From assembly GCF_020172665.1 (NCBI RefSeq), contig NZ_CP083985.1, positions 3,116,040 to 3,180,039 of the forward strand: DNA of 64,000 nucleotides, in the 5' to 3' direction. This stretch comes from [Mycobacterium] zoologicum. GTDB lineage: Bacteria > Actinomycetota > Actinomycetes > Mycobacteriales > Mycobacteriaceae. Positions 6,630 through 15,564 of this stretch are shown in pieces. The first letter of the stretch is position 1; each line of letters opens with the position of its first letter. A model generated the notes under the pieces. That model was given only the letters and a program-made list of their open reading frames with translations, searched no databases and was not told the origin of the DNA. Made by a program: the position numbers and the translations under genes.

Positions 6630-7838
6630 ATGGCAATCAATCTGGAACTCCCCAAGAAGCTGCAGAGCGTCATCGAGATGACCCACGCCGGTGCCGCCGA
6701 GATCCTGCGCCCCATCTCACGCAAATACGACCAGCGCGAACACGCCTACCCGGTCGAACTGGACACGCTCGAGACCCTGTTCGACGGCGTCTCCAAGGCG
6801 GGCGGCAGCGACCTGGCCGGCGCGGAGGCATTCCGCGACACCGCCGCCGCGGCGGGCAACCGCAACGGCGCCAACATGGCGGCGATGCTGCAGGTGCTCG
6901 AAATGAGCTGGGGCGACGTCGCTTTGATGCTCTCGATCCCCTATCAGGGACTGGGCAACGCGGCCATCTCCGGCGTGGCCACCGACGAGCAGCTCGAGCG
7001 GCTGGGCAAGGTGTGGGCGGCAATGGCCATCACCGAGCCGAGCTTCGGCTCCGACTCGGCCGCCGTGACCACCACCGCCACCCTCGACGGCGACGAGTAC
7101 GTGATCAACGGCGAGAAGATCTTCGTCACCGCCGGATCGCGGTGCACCCATATCGTGGTGTGGGCCAGCCTGGACCGCTCACTGGGACGCGCGGCCATCA
7201 AGTCGTTCATCGTGCCGCGTGAGCACCCCGGCGTCATCGTCGAGCGCCTGGAGCACAAGCTCGGCATCAAGGCCTCCGATACCGCGGTGATCCGGTTCGA
7301 CAACGCCCGCATCCCCAAGGGCAACCTGCTGGGCAGCCCGGAGATCAACACCGAGAAGAGCTTCTCGGGGGTGATGGAGACCTTCGACAGCACCCGGCCG
7401 ATCGTCGCCGCCATGGCGGTCGGAATCGCCCGCGCCGCACTCGAAGAGCTGCGCAAGGTGCTCGTCGACGCCGGGATCGAGATCTCCTACGACAAGCCGG
7501 CACACGCCCAGAGCGCACCGGCCGCAGAGTTCCTGCGGATGGAGGCCGACTGGGAGTCGGCGAATCTGCTGACGCTGCGTTCGGCGTGGCAGGCCGACAA
7601 CTCCATCCCCAACTCCAAGGAAGCCTCGATGGGCAAGGCCAAGGCCGCCCGGATGGCCACCGACGTCACCCTCAAGACCGTCGAGTTGACCGGCACGCTG
7701 GGCTATTCCGAGCAGACCCTGCTGGAGAAGTGGGGCCGCGACTCGAAGATCCTGGACATCTTCGAGGGCACCCAGCAGATCCAGCTACTGGTGGTGGCCC
7801 GCCGGCTGCTGGGCCTGAGCTCCGCCGAGCTGAAGTAG
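6630..7838 (+). CDS. fadE23: Acyl-CoA dehydrogenase FadE23
   Basis: 402 residues. It is a standard-length acyl-CoA dehydrogenase with ITEPSFGSDS in the flavin-binding middle domain, a conserved TAGSRCTH loop, and the C-terminal LDIFEGTQQIQL segment carrying the Glu expected to act as catalytic base. It probably oxidises a fatty or branched acyl-CoA to the enoyl-CoA, either alone or as the catalytic partner of FadE24. The gap to fadE24 is 47 nt, so the pair is probably one transcript. The order fadE24-fadE23 matches Rv3139-Rv3140. The gene is followed by a long stem-loop at 7848-7906. Confidence 0.92.
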   Translation: MAINLELPKKLQSVIEMTHAGAAEILRPISRKYDQREHAYPVELDTLETLFDGVSKAGGSDLAGAEAFRDTAAAAGNRNGANMAAMLQVLEMSWGDVALMLSIPYQGLGNAAISGVATDEQLERLGKVWAAMAITEPSFGSDSAAVTTTATLDGDEYVINGEKIFVTAGSRCTHIVVWASLDRSLGRAAIKSFIVPREHPGVIVERLEHKLGIKASDTAVIRFDNARIPKGNLLGSPEINTEKSFSGVMETFDSTRPIVAAMAVGIARAALEELRKVLVDAGIEISYDKPAHAQSAPAAEFLRMEADWESANLLTLRSAWQADNSIPNSKEASMGKAKAARMATDVTLKTVELTGTLGYSEQTLLEKWGRDSKILDIFEGTQQIQLLVVARRLLGLSSAELK

Positions 7839-7847
7839 CCTTCCCCG

Positions 7848-7906
7848 CGAGCGTGCAGAAGGGTCCGGCAAACCCGCAGGTGGGCCCGGACCTTGGTGCA
7901 CGCTCG
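7848..7906. repeat. Long nested stem-loop after fadE23
   Basis: A perfect 10-bp outer stem (CGAGCGTGCA at 7848-7857 with TGCACGCTCG at 7897-7906) encloses a second stem (GGTCCGG with CCGGACC). It starts 9 nt after the fadE23 stop. No U-run follows, so it is not a classical intrinsic terminator; it could be a U-less mycobacterial terminator, an mRNA-stabilising hairpin or a dispersed intergenic repeat. Confidence 0.6.
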
Positions 7907-7934
7907 GCGCGAGTGAACCCTTGCGTCGGCCCGG

Positions 7935-7966
7935 CACAAAAAGTAAAATCAGTTTCACTTTTTGTG
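7935..7966. promoter_or_regulatory. 32-bp dyad operator in front of the dioxygenase cluster
   Basis: Perfect outer arms CACAAAAAGT (7935-7944) and ACTTTTTGTG (7957-7966) enclose a further partly symmetric core (AAAAT CA GTTTC). The site is AT-rich against a GC-rich background and ends 20 nt before the dioxygenase ATG. Its size and position suit a repressor of TetR type. The TetR encoded inside the same cluster (12368-13006) is the obvious candidate ligand, but that is inference. Confidence 0.75.
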
Positions 7967-7986
7967 TCGAGCCTTGGGAGTCGCCG

Positions 7987-9081
7987 ATGGAATCCTTCGT
8001 CCACCTGCGCAAAGGCACCACCCCTCGCCGCCTGCACGCCGACCTCGACGGCCTCAAGGACGACGAGCTGGGCCGCGGCGGCTTCACCGGACGCACCGCC
8101 AACCTGTACCGGCTGGGCGACCCGACCGCGTACCGGGCCGAGGGCCCGCTGCGGCCGATCGACGTGCTGTCGACTCAACTCGAGCCGGCCGACGCCACCG
8201 ACCCGGCGGGGCACCCGCTGCGGTTGTTCCACAACGACGACTGCCGCATCTCGCTGTCCCGGCGCTCGGCGGAGATGCCGTATCACGTGCGCTACGTCGA
8301 CGGTGATCTGTTGTTCTTCGTGCACACCGGATCCGGGCACTTGGAGACCGAGTTCGGGCCGCTGGACTACCGCGAGGGTGACTGGGTGTACCTGCCCAAG
8401 GCCACCACCTGGCGGCAGGTACCCGCGGCCGAGACGACGCTGCTGCTGATCGAGGCCACCGACGAGTTCCGGGTACCGCCACCGGGCCCGCTCGGGCGAC
8501 ACTTCCCATTCGATCCGTCGCAGGCGGTCATTCCCGAACCGGCCCCCATCGACGACGACGGTCGCGAGGAGTACGAGGTCCGGCTGATCCACGACGGTGG
8601 ACCGACAACGCTGTACTACCAACACAATCCGATCGACGTGGCGGGCTGGCGCGGCGACAACTTCGCGTTCAGCTTCAACATCGCCGACTACAACGTCGTC
8701 ACCTCCGACAGCGTGCACCTGCCCCCGACCGTGCACCTGTTCATGCAGGCCACCGGCGTGTATGTGATGAACTTCCTGCCCAAGCCCGCCGAAGGGGTGC
8801 CGGGCACCGAACGCACCCCCTGGTATCACCGCAACGTCGACTACGACGAGATCGCCTTCTTCCACGGCGGATCGCTCTATGGGATCCCGATGCCGCCGGG
8901 CCTGATCAGCCATGCACCCCAAGGTGTGCACCACGGCGCCCCGGAGGCCGCCCGCGAACGCGCCCGCCGCAAGTTCGACGACTATCCCCGAGTGGACTGG
9001 CAGGTGATCGCGATCGACACCCGCCGTCGCCTGGCTCCATCACCGGAAGTTCTCGCCAAAGACCTGGGACAGCACGCATGA
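7987..9081 (+). CDS. Homogentisate 1,2-dioxygenase-like cupin enzyme
   Basis: 364 residues with the bicupin layout of homogentisate 1,2-dioxygenases. The N-terminal half has LFFVHTGSGHLET and GDWVYLPKATTW cupin strands. The C-terminal half has WYHRNVDYDE (H281, E288) and APQGVHHGA (H315/H316), where the family places its Fe(II) His-Glu-His ligands. It is shorter than typical HmgA (about 380-440), and no maleylacetoacetate isomerase or fumarylacetoacetase gene is nearby, so the true substrate may be a different aromatic diol or ring acid. The start ATG 7987 follows the 7935-7966 dyad. It is the first gene of a run of eight in which six junctions overlap or nearly overlap. Confidence 0.8.
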   Translation: MESFVHLRKGTTPRRLHADLDGLKDDELGRGGFTGRTANLYRLGDPTAYRAEGPLRPIDVLSTQLEPADATDPAGHPLRLFHNDDCRISLSRRSAEMPYHVRYVDGDLLFFVHTGSGHLETEFGPLDYREGDWVYLPKATTWRQVPAAETTLLLIEATDEFRVPPPGPLGRHFPFDPSQAVIPEPAPIDDDGREEYEVRLIHDGGPTTLYYQHNPIDVAGWRGDNFAFSFNIADYNVVTSDSVHLPPTVHLFMQATGVYVMNFLPKPAEGVPGTERTPWYHRNVDYDEIAFFHGGSLYGIPMPPGLISHAPQGVHHGAPEAARERARRKFDDYPRVDWQVIAIDTRRRLAPSPEVLAKDLGQHA

Positions 9082-10256
9082 AACACGACTACGAACGCAT
9101 CCCCTATCTGATTGCCTACCAGAATGATTCGGGGGTCCGCGATGTCTACGGCGGGGTGGCCGAGCTGGTGGTGCTGGAGAGCTATCTGTTGCGCCCCAAG
9201 GACACCCCCAGCGACACCGTGCTGGTGTTCATGCACCCGATCGGCGGAGGCGCCTACCTGCCGATGGTCAATGCCCTGGCGCGCGCCGGACACCATGTCA
9301 TCTACTGCAACAGCCGCTTTCGGGGCACCGACTCCGCGCTGCTGATGGAGAAGGTGGTCCAAGACCTCGGCGAGTGCATCAAAGACGCCAAGAACCGGCT
9401 CGGCTATACCAAGGTGGTGCTGGCCGGCTGGAGCGGCGGCGGCTCACTGTCGCTGTTCTACCAGCAGCAGGCACAGCACCCGACCGTGACGGCCAGCCCG
9501 TCCGGCGACGGCCCCGACCTGACCAAGCTCGGGCTGATCCCCGCCGACGGGGTCATGCTGCTGGCCGCCCACATCAGCCGGCACGGCACCATGACCGAAT
9601 GGCTGGATGCCTCCATCCTCGACGAGACCGACCCGACCAAGCGTGACCCGGAGCTGGATCTCTACGACCCGGCCAACCCCAACCAGCCGCCCTATACCGC
9701 CGAGTTCCTGGACCGCTACCGGGACGCTCAGATCAACCGCAATCGACGGATCACCGAGTGGGTCAAAGAGAAACTGGCCGAGCTGAAGGCTGCCGGGCGT
9801 CCCGATGATGAGTTCGCGTTCGTGGTGCACGGCACCATGGCCGACCCGCGCTGGCTGGATCCGGCCGTCGACCCCAACGACCGCGTACCGGGTACCTGCT
9901 ATCTGGGCGATCCGCAGGTGGTGAACATGAGCCCGGTCGGCCTGGCCCGGTTCTGCACGTTGCGCAGCTGGCTGTCGCAGTGGAGTTACGACGACGCCAA
10001 CGGCGACGGGCTGGACTGCGGTGCCGACATCGCAGTGCCCACCCTGGTGATCGGCAACACGGCCGACGACGCCTGCACCCCCAGCCACACCCGGCGGCTC
10101 TTCGAGGCGATCGGCACCGGCGACAAGGAGATGCACGAAATCGCCGGGGCCAACCACTACTACGCCGGTGTCGACCAGCGCGGGGCGCTGCGACAGGCCG
10201 TCGGCACCGTCACCGATTGGCTGACCCGACATGACTTCGTAAGCTCAACCCTGTGA
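9078..10256 (+). CDS. Alpha/beta-hydrolase
   Basis: 392 residues with a nucleophile elbow GWSGGGS at 117-123 (Ser119), an early HPIGGG oxyanion segment at 53-58, and a late GANHYY histidine region. A D-rich strand (GNTADDACTPSHT) probably supplies the acid. The start ATG overlaps the dioxygenase stop by 4 nt (ATGA), implying translational coupling. After ring cleavage, a hydrolase could cut a C-C or thioester/ester bond of the product; which one cannot be told from sequence. It lacks the fumarylacetoacetase fold, so it does not simply replace that enzyme of the classical homogentisate route. Confidence 0.82.
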   Translation: MKHDYERIPYLIAYQNDSGVRDVYGGVAELVVLESYLLRPKDTPSDTVLVFMHPIGGGAYLPMVNALARAGHHVIYCNSRFRGTDSALLMEKVVQDLGECIKDAKNRLGYTKVVLAGWSGGGSLSLFYQQQAQHPTVTASPSGDGPDLTKLGLIPADGVMLLAAHISRHGTMTEWLDASILDETDPTKRDPELDLYDPANPNQPPYTAEFLDRYRDAQINRNRRITEWVKEKLAELKAAGRPDDEFAFVVHGTMADPRWLDPAVDPNDRVPGTCYLGDPQVVNMSPVGLARFCTLRSWLSQWSYDDANGDGLDCGADIAVPTLVIGNTADDACTPSHTRRLFEAIGTGDKEMHEIAGANHYYAGVDQRGALRQAVGTVTDWLTRHDFVSSTL

Positions 10257-11458
10257 CTGCGACGGGCGCACTGGACGGAATCCGGGTCGTCGAACTCGGC
10301 ACCCTGATCTCCGGGCCGTTCGCCGGGCGCCTGCTCGGCGACATGGGCGCCGAGGTCATCAAGATCGAGCTGCCCGGCAAGCCGGACCCGTTGCGTACCT
10401 GGGGGCAGGCCGAACTCGACGGACACCACTTCTTCTGGACCGTGCACGCCCGCAACAAAAAAGCCGTCACGCTGGATCTGCGCAGCGAGCAGGGCCGCGA
10501 GCTGTTCCTCGAGCTCGTCGAGCACTGCAACATCGTCATCGAGAACTTCCGCCCCGGCACCCTGGAGCGTTGGGGATTGGGCTTCGACGTGCTGCGCCAA
10601 CGCAACAAGGGCATCATCCTGGTGCGGGTCTCCGGCTACGGGCAGACCGGTCCGGACGCCGGCAAGGCGGGCTACGCCTCCGTCGCCGAGGCCGCCAGCG
10701 GACTGCGGCACATGAACGGCTTTCCCGGCGGGCCACCGCCGCGGCTGGCACTGTCACTCGGTGACAGCCTGGCCGGCATGTTCGCCGCGCAGGGCGCGCT
10801 GGCAGCGCTGTACCGCCGCACCGTCACCGGCGAGGGCCAAGTCGTCGACGTGGCGCTGACCGAATCGTGTTTGGCCATCCAGGAATCCACCGTCCCCGAC
10901 TACGACGTCGGCGGCGTGGTGCGCGGGCCGTCCGGCACCCGCCTGGAGGGCATCGCCCCGTCGAACATCTATCAGTCCGCCGACGGCAGTTGGGTGGTGA
11001 TCGCCGCCAATCAGGACAGCGTGTTCGCCCGGCTGTGCAACGCGATGGACTCCCCCGAGCTGGCAACCGACCCCCGGTTCGCCGATCACGGTGCGCGCGG
11101 CCGTAACCAGGACGTGCTGGACGACATCATCGGCGCGTGGGCCGCCCAGCGGGCGCCCGAGGACATCATCGCGACGCTCAGTGCGGCCGGGGTCATCTCC
11201 GGGCCGATCAACACCGTCGCCGACGTCGTCAAGGACCCGCAGCTGCGGGCCCGCGGCATGCTCGCCGAGCACTGGGACGAAGGCGCCGGGCGGAAAGTGT
11301 TGGGGCCGGGTGTCATTCCAGTGCTCTCCGAGACACCCGGCACCATCCGCAACGCTGGGTCGGCGCGGCCCGGTCAACACAACGCCGAGATCTACGGCGG
11401 GCTGCTGGGCAAGACCGACGCCGAACTCGAAGCCCTGCGTAGCGAGGGAGTGCTGTGA
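10253..11458 (+). CDS. CaiB/BaiF family (class III) CoA transferase
   Basis: 401 residues, starting GTG and overlapping the hydrolase by 4 nt. The N-terminal signature (GIRVVELGTLISGPFAGRLL, GAEVIKIELPGKPDPLR) and NKKAVTLDLRSEQGRELF are characteristic. The Asp expected to form the acyl-anhydride intermediate lies in the SLGDSLAGMFAAQGAL region. It would activate a carboxylic acid to its CoA thioester using another acyl-CoA as donor. In this operon it likely activates an acid formed from the dioxygenase/hydrolase step, handing a substrate to the lyase and acyl-CoA dehydrogenase genes downstream. The substrate is unknown. Confidence 0.9.
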   Translation: MTATGALDGIRVVELGTLISGPFAGRLLGDMGAEVIKIELPGKPDPLRTWGQAELDGHHFFWTVHARNKKAVTLDLRSEQGRELFLELVEHCNIVIENFRPGTLERWGLGFDVLRQRNKGIILVRVSGYGQTGPDAGKAGYASVAEAASGLRHMNGFPGGPPPRLALSLGDSLAGMFAAQGALAALYRRTVTGEGQVVDVALTESCLAIQESTVPDYDVGGVVRGPSGTRLEGIAPSNIYQSADGSWVVIAANQDSVFARLCNAMDSPELATDPRFADHGARGRNQDVLDDIIGAWAAQRAPEDIIATLSAAGVISGPINTVADVVKDPQLRARGMLAEHWDEGAGRKVLGPGVIPVLSETPGTIRNAGSARPGQHNAEIYGGLLGKTDAELEALRSEGVL

Positions 11459-12360
11459 TGACGCTGCCCGGCAAGGTCGCGATCCGCGAGGTCGCACTGC
11501 GCGACGGCCTGCAGATCGAGGAGCCGATCCCGTTGAGCGCCAAGCTGGAACTGCTGGCCGCGATAGCCGCCACCGGCGTCCGCGAGGTCGAGGTGACGTC
11601 CTTCGTGTCGCCGACCAAGGTTCCCGCACTCGCCGACGCCGCGGAGCTCGCCGCCGAACTGTGGCGCTACCCCGACACCGAGTTCTCCGCGCTGGTCGCC
11701 AGCCCGGGCGGGGCGGCTCGCGCGGTGGCCGCCGGGCTGACCTCGATCGAGTACGTGGTGTGCGCCTCGGATGCGTTCAGCACCGCCAACGTCGGCCGCT
11801 CGAGCGCGGAGGCCACCGCGGCGATCGCCGACATCGCCGGCATCGCCCACGACGCCGGCGCGACTGTCGAGGTGATCATCGCCACCGCGTGGGACTGCCC
11901 CTTCGACGGGCCGACTGCCCCGCGGCGTGTCAGCGACATCGCAGCCAAGGCAACAGAATTCGGAGTCGACCGGCTGGCCATCGCCGACACCATCGGCACC
12001 ACCACCCCGCGACGGGTCACCGAACTGATCGCGGCGGTCCGGCCGATCATCGGCGGGATACCGCTGGGCGCGCACTTCCACAACACCCGCGGCGCCGGGC
12101 TGGCCAGCGCGTACGCCGCGGTCAGCGCCGGCATCACGCGGCTGGACTCGTCTGCGGGCGGCCTCGGGGGCTGTCCGTTCGCACCCGGAGCCACCGGCAA
12201 CATCGCCACCGAGGATCTGGTCTACCTGCTGCACGATTGTGGTGTCGAGACCGGGATCGACCTGCAGGCCGCGATCGGGGCGGCACAGGTGGCCGGTTCC
12301 GTCGTCGGGCACGGCCTGCCCAGCGCGCTGCTGGCCGCCGGGGACCGGAAGCGGGACTGA
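11458..12360 (+). CDS. Hydroxymethylglutaryl-CoA lyase-like enzyme
   Basis: 300 residues from ATG 11458, whose first base is the last base of the upstream stop; GTG 11455 would add one residue. It belongs to the DRE-TIM metallolyase family: the N-terminal ALRDGLQIE metal/substrate motif (RDGxQ), GAHFHNTRG with two metal-binding His, and the flexible GGLGGCPFAPGATGN loop whose Cys is catalytic in HMG-CoA lyases. The reaction is retro-aldol cleavage of a 3-hydroxy-3-methylacyl-CoA, giving acetyl-CoA plus a ketoacid. In this operon it may cleave a branched hydroxyacyl-CoA made by the preceding CoA transferase step rather than serve leucine breakdown. Confidence 0.88.
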   Translation: MTLPGKVAIREVALRDGLQIEEPIPLSAKLELLAAIAATGVREVEVTSFVSPTKVPALADAAELAAELWRYPDTEFSALVASPGGAARAVAAGLTSIEYVVCASDAFSTANVGRSSAEATAAIADIAGIAHDAGATVEVIIATAWDCPFDGPTAPRRVSDIAAKATEFGVDRLAIADTIGTTTPRRVTELIAAVRPIIGGIPLGAHFHNTRGAGLASAYAAVSAGITRLDSSAGGLGGCPFAPGATGNIATEDLVYLLHDCGVETGIDLQAAIGAAQVAGSVVGHGLPSALLAAGDRKRD

Positions 12361-12367
12361 GCCGGAG

Positions 12368-13006
12368 ATGGCCGGCCAGCGGGAGCTCAGTACGAAGGGC
12401 CGCCAGACTCGCGGCGCGATCGAACAGGCTGCCCGGAAACTCTTCGCCGAGCGCGGCTTTCACGGCACCACCCTGGCCGACATCACCTCGGCGGCCGGCA
12501 AGTCGACGGCGGTGCTCTACCGATACTTCACCGACAAGGAGGACCTGCTGGCCGCGCTGGCCGAGTCGTTCCTGACCGACGTGGTGGAGCCGTCGGGCCT
12601 GAAGATGCGGCTACCGGACTCTCCCCCGCAAGCGGGAGGTACCCCCACGGGCGACACCGAGTTCTTCACCTCGGTGGTCAGCGCCTACTGGTCGATGTTC
12701 AAGCAGAACATCGGCGTCATGATCGCCGTGGCCCAACTGGCCTCCACCAACGCGCGATTCTCCGCGCTGCAGAACGAGTTCCGCCGCTTCGGCATGGACA
12801 TCGTCGCCGCCTCGGTGCGGCACGCCCAGCAGCAGGGCCACGGCCTCGACCTCGATCCCGACCACACCGCGGCGGCCATCGCCCTGCTGTTCGAGAACTT
12901 CACCGTCGTCTTCGTCGGCCCATCCGGTCCGGGATGGCGAATCAGCGACAGCGACGCAATAGCGACGCTGGCGACGATCTGGCGAAAAACCCTGTACGGC
13001 AACTGA
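12368..13006 (+). CDS. TetR-family transcriptional regulator of the cluster
   Basis: 212 residues from ATG 12368 (MAGQRELSTKGRQTRGAI). The helix-turn-helix is clear at about residues 30-55 (FHGTTLADITSAAGKSTAVLYRYF). The C-terminal ligand domain is about 140 residues. It sits inside the operon, 7 nt after the lyase, so it is probably co-expressed and may repress the cluster through the dyad at 7935-7966. An odd in-frame segment (SPPQAGGTPT) is encoded by a C-rich repeat at 12621-12648 that looks like a dispersed element inserted into the linker before the C-terminal domain. Confidence 0.9.
   Translation: MAGQRELSTKGRQTRGAIEQAARKLFAERGFHGTTLADITSAAGKSTAVLYRYFTDKEDLLAALAESFLTDVVEPSGLKMRLPDSPPQAGGTPTGDTEFFTSVVSAYWSMFKQNIGVMIAVAQLASTNARFSALQNEFRRFGMDIVAASVRHAQQQGHGLDLDPDHTAAAIALLFENFTVVFVGPSGPGWRISDSDAIATLATIWRKTLYGN
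12621..12648. repeat. C-rich hairpin repeat inserted in frame in the TetR gene
   Basis: The stretch contains a CCCGC-AA-GCGGG palindrome (12625-12636) followed by AGGTACCCCCAC and adds about ten residues in frame. A similar palindrome occurs in nuoN (30534-30545). I believe such elements recur in coding regions of some mycobacteria, but I could not search for copies. Confidence 0.55.
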
Positions 13007-13016
13007 AGGAGACGCA

Positions 13017-14258
13017 ATGGACTTCACCCTGCCCGCCCACCTGCCGGACGTGCTCGCCGAGATGGACGCCTTCATCGAACGCGAGATCGCTCCGCTGCAG
13101 GCCGAGAACATGCAGTACTTCGACCATCGCCGCGAATTCGCCCGTACCGACATCGAGCAGGACGGCATCCCGCGCCGGGAGTGGGAGGACCTGCTCGCCG
13201 AGATGCGCCGCCGGGCCGACGCCGCGGGATGGCTGCGCTACGGGCTGCCGTCGTCGCTGGGCGGCCGCGACGGCACCAACATCGACATGGCCGTGATCCG
13301 GGAACATCTGGCGCACAAGGGACTCGGCCTACACAACGACCTGCAGGACGAGTCGTCGATCGTCGGGAACTTTCCGCAGGTCATCATGATGGAGCGATTC
13401 GGCACCGACGAGCAGCGCCGCGAGTTCTCCCAGGCCATGATCACCGGCGAGCGGTCCATGGCGTTCGGCCTCACCGAGCCGGCGCACGGTTCGGACGCCA
13501 CCTGGCTGGAGACCCGCGCCGAGCCCGACGGTGACGGCTGGGTGATCAACGGCGCCAAGCGATTCAACACCGGAGTGCATCGGGCCACCCACGACCTGGT
13601 GTTCGCCCGCACCTCCGGAGAGGCCGGCGCCGCGACCGGCATCACCGCATTCCTGGTACCCACCGACACGCCCGGCTTCACCGTCCCGTTCTACTGGTGG
13701 ACGTTCAACATGCCCACCGATCACGGCGAGGTCGAGCTCGACGACGTCCGGGTACCGGCCGCGGCGGTGCTCGGCGAGGTCGACCACGGCCTGGAGGTCG
13801 CCCAGACCTTCTTGCACGAGAACCGCATTCGTCAGGCCGCTTCCAGCCTGGGTGCCGCGCAGTACTGCATCGACCGGGCGGCCGAATACGCCGTACAACG
13901 CCGGGTGTTCGGCAAGCCACTGTCGATCAACCAGGCCGTCCAATGGCCGCTGGCCGAGCTGCAGACCGAAGCACAGATGGTGCGACTGCTGGTGTACTAC
14001 GCAGCATGGCATCTGGACCGTGATCACCACCTGGAGGTCTCCGACAAGGTGTCGATGGCCAACTACCGCGCCAACCGGTTGGTGTGCAACGCCGCCGACC
14101 AGGCGATCCAGACCTTCGGCGGGCTCGGCTACACCCGGCACCAGCAGTTCGAGCACATCTATCGTCACCACCGCCGGTACCGGATCACCGAAGGAGCCGA
14201 GGAGATTCAGATCCGCCGGGTCGCGCAGCGGCTGTTCGGGTTCGACCGCCGACGATGA
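13017..14258 (+). CDS. Acyl-CoA dehydrogenase
   Basis: 413 residues. The FAD middle domain has GLTEPAHGSDATWLETRAE; the C-terminal domain has QTFGGLGYTRHQQFEHIYRH and then RITEGAEEIQIRRVAQRLFG, with Glu in the normal catalytic position. It is of the kind often paired with an APH-fold kinase in mycobacterial and other bacterial acyl-CoA degradation clusters. ATG 13017 follows the TetR stop by 10 nt with a GGAGA ribosome binding site (13007-13011). It should introduce a double bond into the CoA ester made by the CoA transferase in this cluster. Confidence 0.9.
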   Translation: MDFTLPAHLPDVLAEMDAFIEREIAPLQAENMQYFDHRREFARTDIEQDGIPRREWEDLLAEMRRRADAAGWLRYGLPSSLGGRDGTNIDMAVIREHLAHKGLGLHNDLQDESSIVGNFPQVIMMERFGTDEQRREFSQAMITGERSMAFGLTEPAHGSDATWLETRAEPDGDGWVINGAKRFNTGVHRATHDLVFARTSGEAGAATGITAFLVPTDTPGFTVPFYWWTFNMPTDHGEVELDDVRVPAAAVLGEVDHGLEVAQTFLHENRIRQAASSLGAAQYCIDRAAEYAVQRRVFGKPLSINQAVQWPLAELQTEAQMVRLLVYYAAWHLDRDHHLEVSDKVSMANYRANRLVCNAADQAIQTFGGLGYTRHQQFEHIYRHHRRYRITEGAEEIQIRRVAQRLFGFDRRR

Positions 14259-15235
14259 CTTCTGACGAGTTGGCCGACAAGCTGGCCACGGTACTGGCAC
14301 CGGAACTCGGCCCGGTCACCGTCGAGGGACTGCGCACCCTGACCGGCGGCGCCAGCAGAACCACCTGGGCCTTTGACGCCGTTGCCGCCGGCGATGCGCC
14401 GCAACGCCATGCGCTGATCCTACGCACCGGACCACCCGATGAGATCCACGCCGGCATGGAGCTCGAAGCGGATGCCCAACGCGCCGCGCAGCGGGCGGGA
14501 GCCCCGGTGCCGACAGTTCTCATCGCCGACGATTCCACGGCGGCGCTGGGCAATCCGTTCCTGATCTGCGACGAGATCGCCGGCGAGACGGTGGTCCGCC
14601 GTATCGAGCGCCAGCTCGACGACACCGGCCGCGCATATCTTCTGGATCAGTGCGCCCGGGCGCTGGCGGCCATTCATCGGGCCGACCCGGCTGGCGTCGC
14701 ACTGAGCTCTGAGGACCAGTTGTCGGCCTGCCGTGCGCAGCTGGATTCGATGCACGACACAACGGCCGTCTTCGAGTGGGCGTTTCGGTGGCTGGAGAGC
14801 AGACGACCTTCGCCTGCGCCCGCACAGCTGGTGCACGGTGACTTCCGGATGGGCAACCTGATCGTCAACGGGTCGAGGCTGGCCGCGGTGCTGGACTGGG
14901 AGCTGGTGCACCTCGGCGACTCGTGTGAGGACCTGGCCTGGTTCTGCCTTCGGGCTTGGCGGTTCGGCGCTCCGCCGGAACGCGCCGCAGGCGGTCTGGG
15001 CGACATCGGCGGTTTCCTGGCCGCCTACGCCGACGCCGCCGGAACCACCGTCGATGAGGACCGTTTCGCCTGGTGGCTGGTGTTGGGCACGCTTCGCTGG
15101 GGCATCATCTGCCGCTACCAGGCGGAACGACATCTGAGCGGGCAGAGCCGATCGGTGGAATTGGCGACCATCGGCCGTCGGGTCAGCGAAACCGAGTGGG
15201 ACCTGCTGCGACTGCTCGATCAGGTGCCGGCATGA
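14255..15235 (+). CDS. APH-fold phosphotransferase (acyl-CoA catabolism type)
   Basis: 326 residues from an ATG overlapping the dehydrogenase stop by 4 nt. The aminoglycoside-phosphotransferase/choline-kinase fold shows in the catalytic LVHGDFRMGNLIV loop (HGD with Asn) and the metal-binding AVLDWELVHLGD motif. The family is named after antibiotic kinases, but proteins fused or adjacent to acyl-CoA dehydrogenases (as in ACAD10/11-type enzymes) phosphorylate 4-hydroxyacyl-CoAs, which then lose phosphate. Adjacency here favours such a role over antibiotic resistance; this is inference from context. Confidence 0.85.
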   Translation: MTSDELADKLATVLAPELGPVTVEGLRTLTGGASRTTWAFDAVAAGDAPQRHALILRTGPPDEIHAGMELEADAQRAAQRAGAPVPTVLIADDSTAALGNPFLICDEIAGETVVRRIERQLDDTGRAYLLDQCARALAAIHRADPAGVALSSEDQLSACRAQLDSMHDTTAVFEWAFRWLESRRPSPAPAQLVHGDFRMGNLIVNGSRLAAVLDWELVHLGDSCEDLAWFCLRAWRFGAPPERAAGGLGDIGGFLAAYADAAGTTVDEDRFAWWLVLGTLRWGIICRYQAERHLSGQSRSVELATIGRRVSETEWDLLRLLDQVPA

Positions 15236-15564
15236 TCGGCCGTCGCCCCACCGCCGCCGAACTGGTTACCGCGGTCGCCGAGTTCCTCGACAGCGCATTT
15301 GCCGGCGGCGACGCCGGCACGCAGGGCCAGGTCAGGTTCCACGCCCGAGTGGCCGCCAACGCTTTGCGCATCGTCGAACGCGAACTGTCCGACACGTCCT
15401 CGGATGCGCCAGCACTGGCCGCACTGGGCTTCACCGACGAGGCCGCGCTGGCGGCGGCCATCCGGGCCGGTGACCTCGACGACCGTGCCGAGGCGCTCAC
15501 CGACTGCCTCTACACCCTGGTCCGGCACCGGTTGTCAATAGATCATCCGGGGTACGACCAATAA
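15232..15564 (+). CDS. Small partner protein of the phosphotransferase (DUF6285-like)
   Basis: 110 residues, ATG overlapping the kinase stop by 4 nt. It is predominantly helical, with an N-terminal RRPTAAELVTAVAEFLD and central VRFHARVAANALRIVEREL. Proteins like this are regularly encoded right after APH-fold kinase/acyl-CoA dehydrogenase pairs; the family name is from memory. Enzymatic function is unknown, and a structural or regulatory subunit of the kinase is likely. It is the last gene of the cluster; 136 nt without a gene follow before the pseudo-receiver gene, with no clear terminator seen. Confidence 0.75.
   Translation: MIGRRPTAAELVTAVAEFLDSAFAGGDAGTQGQVRFHARVAANALRIVERELSDTSSDAPALAALGFTDEAALAAAIRAGDLDDRAEALTDCLYTLVRHRLSIDHPGYDQ

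What the first reader, a model, noticed from the sequence alone, without database searches (positions are those of the whole stretch)
7987..15564. Possible undescribed degradation pathway: dioxygenase, hydrolase, CoA transferase, lyase, dehydrogenase, kinase
Eight genes, several with ATGA overlaps, combine a homogentisate-dioxygenase-like cupin with class III CoA transferase, HMG-CoA-lyase-like enzyme, acyl-CoA dehydrogenase and an APH-fold kinase plus partner. The classical homogentisate genes (isomerase, fumarylacetoacetase) are absent, so the ring-cleavage product would have to be activated to a CoA ester and cleaved retro-aldol. I do not know a pathway with this set. The kinase/dehydrogenase pair suggests a hydroxyacyl-CoA intermediate. 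The cluster lies between fadE23 and the Rv3143 homologue, where M. tuberculosis has Rv3141-Rv3142c.
Basis: partly seen in the sequence, partly recalled or inferred. Interest (0 to 1): 0.75.

Follow-up and report, generated by a model that had tools for sequence, protein, structure and literature searches.

The report
Mycobacterial operon for hydroquinone breakdown
A conserved set of eight mycobacterial genes looks like a dedicated, undescribed route for opening a substituted hydroquinone ring and feeding the pieces into central metabolism; its real substrate is unknown, and vitamin-E-like molecules are only the best guess.

Summary
Eight co-directional genes (7987-15564) encode an HGD-like dioxygenase, an alpha/beta hydrolase (ABH), a class III CoA-transferase, an HMG-CoA-lyase-like enzyme, TetR, an acyl-CoA dehydrogenase (ACAD), an APH-fold kinase and DUF6285. 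All eight are colinear in 75 of 80 named loci chosen by their dioxygenase; the other 5 end early. A palindromic operator overlaps the promoter and was found nowhere else in 8 of 8 genomes.

Best reading: ring cleavage of an alkylated hydroquinone, hydrolysis by ABH, CoA transfer and lyase cleavage of a substituted malate-type acid; the kinase treats a hydroxyacyl-CoA. The ACAD lacks the LvaC/ACAD11 signature, and the modules can survive apart. Substrate unproven. Ten literature searches showed no matching pathway. New variant of a known kind.

The parts
7921..7966 (+). Promoter-like hexamers (TTGCGT 7921-7926, TAAAAT 7944-7949, 17-nt spacer) with an overlapping palindromic operator, 7935-7966
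   Evidence: Read (hexamers picked by eye). The palindrome is seen by eye upstream of the dioxygenase in 21 of 21 mycobacterial operon loci, window included. The motif search (up to 2 mismatches) hits only this promoter in 8 of 8 genomes, counting overlapping reverse matches as the same site; the reversed-pattern control hit once, in one of the 8. In L078 a second copy precedes TetR where an insertion splits the operon.
7987..9081 (+). HGD-like cupin ring-cleavage dioxygenase, 364 aa
9078..10256 (+). alpha/beta hydrolase, next to the dioxygenase throughout its clade; proposed to hydrolyse the ring-cleavage product
10253..11458 (+). class III (CaiB/BaiF) CoA-transferase
   Evidence: PF02515 398.8 bits; best NCBIfam match succinate--glutarate CoA-transferase, 245.6 bits, far below its cut-off of 750.
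11458..12360 (+). HMG-CoA-lyase-like retro-Claisen/retro-aldol lyase
   Evidence: PRK05692 282 bits over cut-off 246; solved HMG-CoA lyases at E down to 2.3e-57.
12368..13006 (+). TetR-family regulator, presumed to bind the operator at 7935-7966
   Evidence: TetR_N 59.7 bits; in place in 79 of 80 named loci, the 80th (L148) ending before it.
13017..14258 (+). acyl-CoA dehydrogenase with a conventional Glu-type active site (ITEGAEEIQ)
   Evidence: lacks R626/H634/R637 and D753 of ACAD11.
14255..15235 (+). APH-fold small-molecule kinase
   Evidence: APH 101.9 bits; similar to ACAD11 kinase part, 8v3v, E=2.4e-8; HGDFRMGN and LDWE kinase motifs present (read; motif names recalled).
15232..15564 (+). 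DUF6285 protein, presumed kinase partner
   Evidence: PF19802 85.2 bits; the only DUF6285 match in the genome.

Best explanation
The cluster is one TetR-controlled catabolic operon for an alkyl-substituted hydroquinone. Shown: operon structure and conservation, a conserved operator at this promoter only, HGD fold and iron-ligand positions, a changed pocket position, genome-wide co-occurrence with DUF6285. Inferred: (1) the HGD-like enzyme opens a hydroquinone ring between the hydroxyl-bearing carbon and the neighbouring side-chain carbon, giving a 1,3-diketo-enoic acid; (2) ABH hydrolyses the 1,3-diketone, taking the place of maleylacetoacetate isomerase and fumarylacetoacetase, and releases a (methyl)maleate-type C4 acid plus a 3-oxo acid or ketone; (3) after hydration, perhaps by housekeeping LeuCD, the CoA-transferase makes the CoA ester of a citramalate-like acid and the HMGL-like enzyme cleaves it to an acyl-CoA and a 2-oxo acid; (4) the kinase with DUF6285 phosphorylates a hydroxyacyl-CoA (4-hydroxy by analogy with LvaA and ACAD10/11) so that beta-oxidation can continue. 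A dedicated CoA-transferase and lyase make most sense if the C4 acid is alkylated, since plain malate would enter the TCA cycle directly; this points to a methylated ring.
For: Colinearity in 75 of 80 named loci, 5 truncated, and 20 of 20 others. Operator at this promoter only, 8 of 8 genomes. HGD fold; ligand positions kept and His changed to Ala/Thr in 31 of 31 of the ABH-linked clade. No HPPD over cut-off in the window's genome or in 22 of 26 carriers of the HGD-ABH pair searched. DUF6285 in 44 of 44 genomes with the dioxygenase against 24 of 254 without, Fisher p about 1.5e-35, related genomes not being independent; in the same family outside the genus 5 of 5 against 0 of 15, the two loci unlinked. 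G126 holds CoA-transferase, HGD-ABH, thiolase, ACADs, APH-DUF6285 and an HMGL (plus hydratase- and SDR-like genes, by eye) within about 18 kb in another order. On two Sphingobium plasmids ABH lies near CoA-transferase, HMGL and LeuCD; in R. opacus PD630 an HGD-like cupin lies beside ABH with a 3-oxoacid CoA-transferase and LeuD nearby. F420H2-quinone reductase, HsaA-like monooxygenase and MDR oxidoreductase genes lie upstream in part of the mycobacteria.
Against: No substrate or activity is known. The modules are separable: CoA-transferase-HMGL survives without the rest in G002, at another place in G050 and G092, and with a YceI gene in G063; CoA-transferase-HMGL-ACAD-APH-DUF6285 survives without dioxygenase, ABH and TetR in G064 and G023; G029 keeps DUF6285 without the dioxygenase. 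The ABH fold matches do not point to a C-C hydrolase rather than an esterase or lactonase, and of nine plasmid ABH loci read that lack an adjacent HGD only the two Sphingobium ones have HMGL and LeuCD. The ACAD is not LvaC-like. No dedicated hydratase is in the operon; one LeuC copy is in the genome. The dioxygenase model is weak around the active site. DUF6285 hits in the four g2 genomes are partial and barely over cut-off (29-31 bits against 28.1).
Confidence: 0.5

Rival explanations
1. It is a homogentisate pathway after all: the dioxygenase cleaves plain homogentisate and ABH hydrolyses maleylacetoacetate to maleate and acetoacetate, with the other genes serving the products.
For: HGD fold; more distant homologues (about 36-45% id) sit near HPPD-like and FAH-like genes; R. 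oxybenzonivorans and R. opacus pair an HGD that keeps the pocket His with ABH.
Against: TIGR01015 48 bits against a cut-off of 511, though an HPPD-adjacent homologue fails too; pocket His lost; no HPPD over cut-off in 22 of 26 carriers searched; G087 and G126, which have HPPD, carry a second HGD beside it; plain malate would need no CoA-transferase or lyase.
Confidence: 0.15
2. Two or three unrelated modules (HGD-ABH; CoA-transferase-HMGL; ACAD-APH-DUF6285) share a promoter but act on different compounds, for example citramalate or itaconate and 4-hydroxy fatty acids.
For: Separate survival of the modules; in four g2 genomes and G174 DUF6285 is unlinked to the dioxygenase (neighbours read for G376 and G174 only); DUF6285 without the dioxygenase in 24 of 254 genomes.
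Against: DUF6285 in 44 of 44 genomes with the dioxygenase even when unlinked; strict operon with one operator; the functions re-assembled in a different order in G126.
Confidence: 0.2
3. ABH is a lactonase or esterase that acts before the dioxygenase (for example opening a gamma-lactone to the 4-hydroxy acid), not a C-C hydrolase after it.
For: Closest folds are esterases and lipases, with a dienelactone hydrolase among the rows; weak similarity to PcaD and lactonase UilS, far below cut-offs.
Against: Direct gene coupling to the dioxygenase in 31 of 31 clade members and in two Rhodococcus plasmids whose dioxygenase is a distant one; ABH near LeuCD and CoA-transferase-HMGL on two Sphingobium plasmids.
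Confidence: 0.15

Closest known systems
Homogentisate pathway (HPPD - HGD - maleylacetoacetate isomerase - fumarylacetoacetase; pathway recalled)
   Same: Dioxygenase fold, iron-ligand positions and the proposed ring-opening chemistry
   Different: No HPPD over cut-off in the genome; hydrolase beside the dioxygenase instead of an FAH gene; changed pocket position; extra CoA and kinase genes. Isomerase and FAH were not searched genome-wide
Levulinate (lva) operon and mammalian ACAD10/ACAD11 4-hydroxy-acid catabolism (PMC12440821, PMC11342911: listing, start of abstract and passages seen)
   Same: APH-fold kinase next to an acyl-CoA dehydrogenase; in G126 and the f12 genomes the dehydrogenase beside the dioxygenase genes does carry the ACAD11 signature
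   Different: The window's dehydrogenase lacks R626/H634/R637 and the catalytic Asp; no acyl-CoA ligase (LvaE) or short-chain dehydrogenase (LvaD) in the operon
Gentisate-type hydrolytic routes ending in citraconate/citramalate (recalled: maleylpyruvate hydrolase; citramalyl-CoA lyase)
   Same: Hydrolytic splitting to a maleate-type acid, then CoA activation and lyase cleavage, as proposed here
   Different: HGD-family rather than gentisate-family dioxygenase, HMGL-type rather than CitE-type lyase
Sphingobium TKS pTK2 and MI1205 pMI1 clusters (CoA-transferase - HMGL - LeuC - LeuD - VOC - LuxR - ABH - thiolase)
   Same: In TKS, ABH 49%, CoA-transferase 45%, HMGL 39% identical to the window's
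   Different: No HGD-like gene in the stretches read; a VOC protein lies near ABH; dedicated LeuCD present
Rhodococcus opacus PD630 plasmid cluster (cupin - ABH - cysteine hydrolase - FAD monooxygenase - 3-oxoacid CoA-transferase - ... - LeuD)
   Same: HGD-like cupin directly followed by ABH (40% id), CoA-transferase and an LeuD-type protein nearby
   Different: HGD at 31% identity that keeps the pocket His; another class of CoA-transferase; no kinase or DUF6285 annotated in the stretch

Membership tests
Homogentisate 1,2-dioxygenase (TIGR01015) | Equivalog score over the curated cut-off | tested here: not met
   48.3 bits against 510.75. An HPPD-adjacent homologue (L094) also fails, with 79.8, so this test alone does not separate them.
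Homogentisate 1,2-dioxygenase (TIGR01015) | HGD fold | tested here: met
Homogentisate 1,2-dioxygenase (TIGR01015) | 2-His-1-carboxylate iron ligands and the conserved His base | tested here: met
   H281 and H244 positions are His in 64 of 64 sequences, H316 in 63 of 64 (one gap); the carboxylate falls on D287 or E288, offset by one in the alignment (residue roles recalled).
Homogentisate 1,2-dioxygenase (TIGR01015) | His361 (3zds numbering; pocket role recalled) | tested here: not met
   Ala here; His in 17 of 17 HPPD/FAH-linked and 1 of 1 canonical sequences.
LvaA / ACAD10-11 kinase domain | APH-type kinase with catalytic HGD motif, with a DUF6285 partner | tested here: met
   That LvaB is a DUF6285 protein is recalled; Rand 2017 is not held. 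4-hydroxyacyl-CoA activity not testable here.
LvaC / ACAD10-11 dehydrogenase | R626, H634, R637 and catalytic D753 (mouse ACAD11) | tested here: not met
   Window has F, Q, S and E at these positions; the six c32-type enzymes of G126 (two) and the f12 genomes (four) have all four residues.
HMG-CoA lyase (PRK05692) | Subfamily score over cut-off | tested here: met
   282 against 246.
HMG-CoA lyase (PRK05692) | Cleavage of HMG-CoA itself | not testable with these tools
   Needs an enzyme assay.
Class III CoA-transferase | PF02515 over cut-off | tested here: met
   398.8 against 23.3 bits; substrate not predicted, the NCBIfam cut-offs listed are all missed.
C-C bond (1,3-diketone) alpha/beta hydrolases | Fold or activity match to a C-C hydrolase | tested here: inconclusive
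   The 50 rows shown are mostly esterases and lipases; activity not testable here.

The most novel reading that the evidence does not exclude
The operon is the ring-opening and salvage part of a bacterial route for chromanols and prenylquinones such as tocopherol (vitamin E). Opening the chromanol gives a hydroquinone whose side chain carries a hydroxyl that becomes a 4-hydroxy-4-methyl acid; the kinase and dehydrogenase remove it. The methylated hydroquinone ring, bearing either the full chain or a shortened acetic acid, is cleaved by the HGD-like enzyme and ABH to a (di)methylmaleate-type acid, which CoA-transferase and lyase turn into propionyl-CoA or acetyl-CoA and pyruvate. YceI (a family I recall as isoprenoid-binding), F420H2-quinone reductase and HsaA-like monooxygenase genes beside the operon in some species would fit. 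The chemistry is recalled or reasoned; no call tests it.
Probability: 0.2. Interest if true: 0.8.

Novelty: new variant of a known kind. Interest (0 to 1): 0.55.

Why it matters
The dioxygenase gives a match in 85 of 98 genomes of the (broad) genus; leaving out G060 (a 49-residue remnant) and G063 (only a 26%-identical HGD of the canonical kind) it is 83 of 98, or 77 of the 90 good-quality ones. Yet, as far as the searches here reach, these genes carry no described pathway. If right, it adds a ring-cleavage route for alkylated hydroquinones that by-passes the isomerase and fumarylacetoacetase of the homogentisate pathway, couples it to phosphorylation-assisted beta-oxidation, and gives DUF6285 a testable role. 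Many of these proteins are database-named homogentisate 1,2-dioxygenase, which is probably misleading. The loss in some lineages also makes it a marker of the metabolic history of mycobacteria.

Tried and rejected
Considered and rejected or left open: (a) an HGD for tyrosine breakdown: rejected for the window because no HPPD passes the cut-off in G000 and the pocket position differs. (b) A plain LvaABC set: rejected for the dehydrogenase after the residue test, kept for the kinase. (c) An HpaB-family gene in G174 and G126 as a 4-hydroxybutyryl-CoA dehydratase: its best matches are HpaB models, below their cut-offs, and HpaB Pfam domains; by eye I saw no AbfD iron-sulphur cysteine motif (recalled), so I treat it as a likely flavin monooxygenase. 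(d) Other operator sites: none found in the 8 genomes searched, so no wider regulon seen. (e) Reading the substrate from the AF2 dioxygenase model: several segments around the active site have pLDDT under 50. (f) ABH fold search for a C-C hydrolase: none noticed in the 50 rows shown, which proves nothing. (g) LvaC-type dehydrogenases elsewhere in the genomes: present with or without the operon; the best G000 locus fetched (L261) showed no signature, and the next G000 places were not read.

None listed a paper that I recognised as describing this cluster. Only titles and starts of abstracts were seen, except passages of PMC12440821, PMC11342911 and PMC5705681. The library holds open-licence papers only. 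The lactone search found 80 papers; ten were listed and none read.

Rows dropped: tblastn hits under 30-35% coverage; hits under 30% coverage or 45% identity; in the co-occurrence count a dioxygenase counted as present only with over 500 bits (44 of 298), weaker matches being other HGD-family members. In one search a stricter filter missed ABH in 5 and DUF6285 in 1 of 71 loci; I read these as split alignments, since one search finds both.

Full report
What is there. The window lies in a one-contig 4.4 Mb genome, very close to Mycolicibacter sp. MYC017 (100% match of the dioxygenase). Eight genes run in one direction from 7987 to 15564 with gaps of at most 10 nt and several overlaps. Profiles name them HGD-like cupin, alpha/beta hydrolase (ABH), class III CoA-transferase, HMG-CoA-lyase-like, TetR, acyl-CoA dehydrogenase (ACAD), APH-fold kinase and DUF6285. 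The fadE24/fadE23 pair (names recalled) lies upstream; a short gene that I read as the Rv3143 homologue, and nuo genes, lie downstream.

Conservation. The dioxygenase gives a match in 85 of 98 genomes of the same (broad) genus, 79 of 90 of good quality; without G060 (49-residue remnant) and G063 (only a canonical-type HGD at 26% id) this is 83 of 98 and 77 of 90, a few of them split or partial. In 20 of 20 chosen mycobacterial loci the eight genes are in the same order (L078 has an insertion between HMGL and TetR). Of 80 named loci, the best of 306 relatives, 75 have all eight in order and 5 end before the last gene. These sets were picked by the dioxygenase, so they show linkage, not frequency.

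Regulation. A palindrome overlaps the -10-like hexamer just before the dioxygenase, seen by eye in 21 of 21 mycobacterial operon loci. Searched with up to two mismatches, it is found only at this promoter in 8 of 8 genomes; the reversed control pattern gave one hit in one of the 8. In L078, where extra genes separate TetR from HMGL, a second copy stands before TetR. I take this as a pathway-specific TetR site.

Partners across lineages. ABH is next to the dioxygenase in 31 of 31 of the clade. In two Rhodococcus plasmids a more distant HGD is also paired with ABH: near styrene genes in R. oxybenzonivorans, and with a 3-oxoacid CoA-transferase and LeuD nearby in R. opacus PD630. On two Sphingobium plasmids with like gene order ABH lies near CoA-transferase, HMGL and LeuCD (in TKS 49, 45 and 39% identical to the window's). 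The seven other plasmid ABH loci without an adjacent HGD that I read have neither HMGL nor LeuCD in the stretch, and a CoA-transferase only in Diaphorobacter, so the family has wider uses; a thiolase is near in three of the seven. In G126 CoA-transferase, HGD, ABH, thiolase, dehydrogenases, APH-DUF6285 and an HMGL lie within about 18 kb in another order, with hydratase- and SDR-like genes (by eye) between. A paralogous dioxygenase (49%), with a CoA-transferase two genes on (29%) and ABH (53%) about 40 kb away, sits in a P450-rich stretch of an M. avium plasmid.

The kinase module. DUF6285 occurs once in most mycobacterial genomes searched, in this operon (G077 and G251 show a second match). 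Over 298 genomes of the order, 44 of 44 with the dioxygenase (over 500 bits) have DUF6285 and 24 of 254 without it do (Fisher; relatedness not corrected). In the same family outside the genus it is 5 of 5 against 0 of 15, although the two loci are far apart (for example G376, contigs C23 and C24); the four g2 hits are partial (29-31 bits against a cut-off of 28.1). PMC12440821 (passages seen) gives R626, H634, R637 and D753 as the residues that let ACAD11 handle a 4-phosphoacyl-CoA. The window's ACAD has F, Q, S and E there; the c32-type dehydrogenases of G126 and the f12 genomes, beside the same kinase genes, have the full signature. ACAD11-type enzymes also exist elsewhere in many of these genomes, with or without the operon. 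So the kinase step is likely; the use of this ACAD as an LvaC is not.

Results against one pathway. G002 keeps only CoA-transferase and HMGL at this place, G050 and G092 have these two at another place, G063 keeps them with a YceI gene, and G064 and G023 keep CoA-transferase, HMGL, ACAD, APH and DUF6285; G089 looks decayed, and G060 has lost most of the dioxygenase. G029 lacks the dioxygenase and keeps DUF6285. The modules can live apart.

Mechanism. I propose ring cleavage, hydrolysis of the diketone, hydration of the maleate-type half, CoA transfer and lyase cleavage, with phosphorylation-assisted beta-oxidation of a hydroxylated half or side chain. The maleate-type product is inferred from LeuCD, CoA-transferase and HMGL near ABH on the Sphingobium plasmids and LeuD in R. 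opacus. A dedicated CoA-transferase and lyase argue for an alkylated acid, hence a methylated ring. One LeuC copy is in the genome, so the hydratase would be shared or is missing. Neighbouring genes in part of the mycobacteria (F420H2-quinone reductase in 7, HsaA-like monooxygenase, below its model's cut-off, in 6, MDR oxidoreductases c25 in 43 and c20 on the same strand in 38 of 68 loci; downstream SnoaL-like in 51 and YceI in 43 of 71) suit a quinone substrate. Chromanols such as tocopherol would use every module, but no result here tests that.

Verdict. A real, conserved and, within the searches made, undescribed operon; a new combination of known enzyme kinds. Substrate open.

Noticed in passing
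L217 (NZ_CP076857.1 232000-281500), L115, L116: A P450-rich cluster on an M. avium plasmid, with related loci on two unnamed mycobacterial chromosomes, carries a paralogous dioxygenase (about 50% id) with a CoA-transferase nearby and acyl-CoA ligase genes; F420-dependent LLM genes are annotated in L217. Perhaps a second hydroquinone-type pathway.
   Followed up: partly
L276:7761-16576 (R. opacus PD630 plasmid): HGD-like cupin - ABH - cysteine hydrolase - FAD monooxygenase - 3-oxoacid CoA-transferase, with LeuD further on: looks like a hydrolytic variant of the homogentisate or gentisate route.
   Followed up: partly
L094, L096, L100, L103 and similar: In several distant Actinomycetota, short HGD-like proteins (the one tested, L094, fails the TIGR01015 cut-off) sit beside HPPD-like or FAH-like genes; they are probably real homogentisate dioxygenases missed by the equivalog model.
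   Followed up: partly
L219:3987-11134 and the matching part of L279: Two Sphingobium plasmids carry CoA-transferase - HMGL - LeuC - LeuD near ABH and P450 genes: a possible alkylmaleate salvage set.
   Followed up: partly
L117 (G060), L230 (G063), L232 (G089): Reduced or partly decayed copies of the operon in mycobacteria, with the dioxygenase and hydrolase lost or broken.
   Followed up: partly
PMC5705681, table passage: MSMEG_2071, a 203-aa TetR regulator that may be this operon's regulator in M. smegmatis, is listed as a yeast two-hybrid partner of phage Giles LysinA; the identity with the operon's TetR was not checked.
   Followed up: no
window 6630-7987; L064-L067; L068-L083: In the window and the loci most like it (L064-L067) the operon follows fadE23 directly, while in most of the other mycobacterial loci read about 2-7 kb of other genes (quinone-reductase-like, monooxygenase, an Ag85-like protein by eye) lie in between.
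   Followed up: partly
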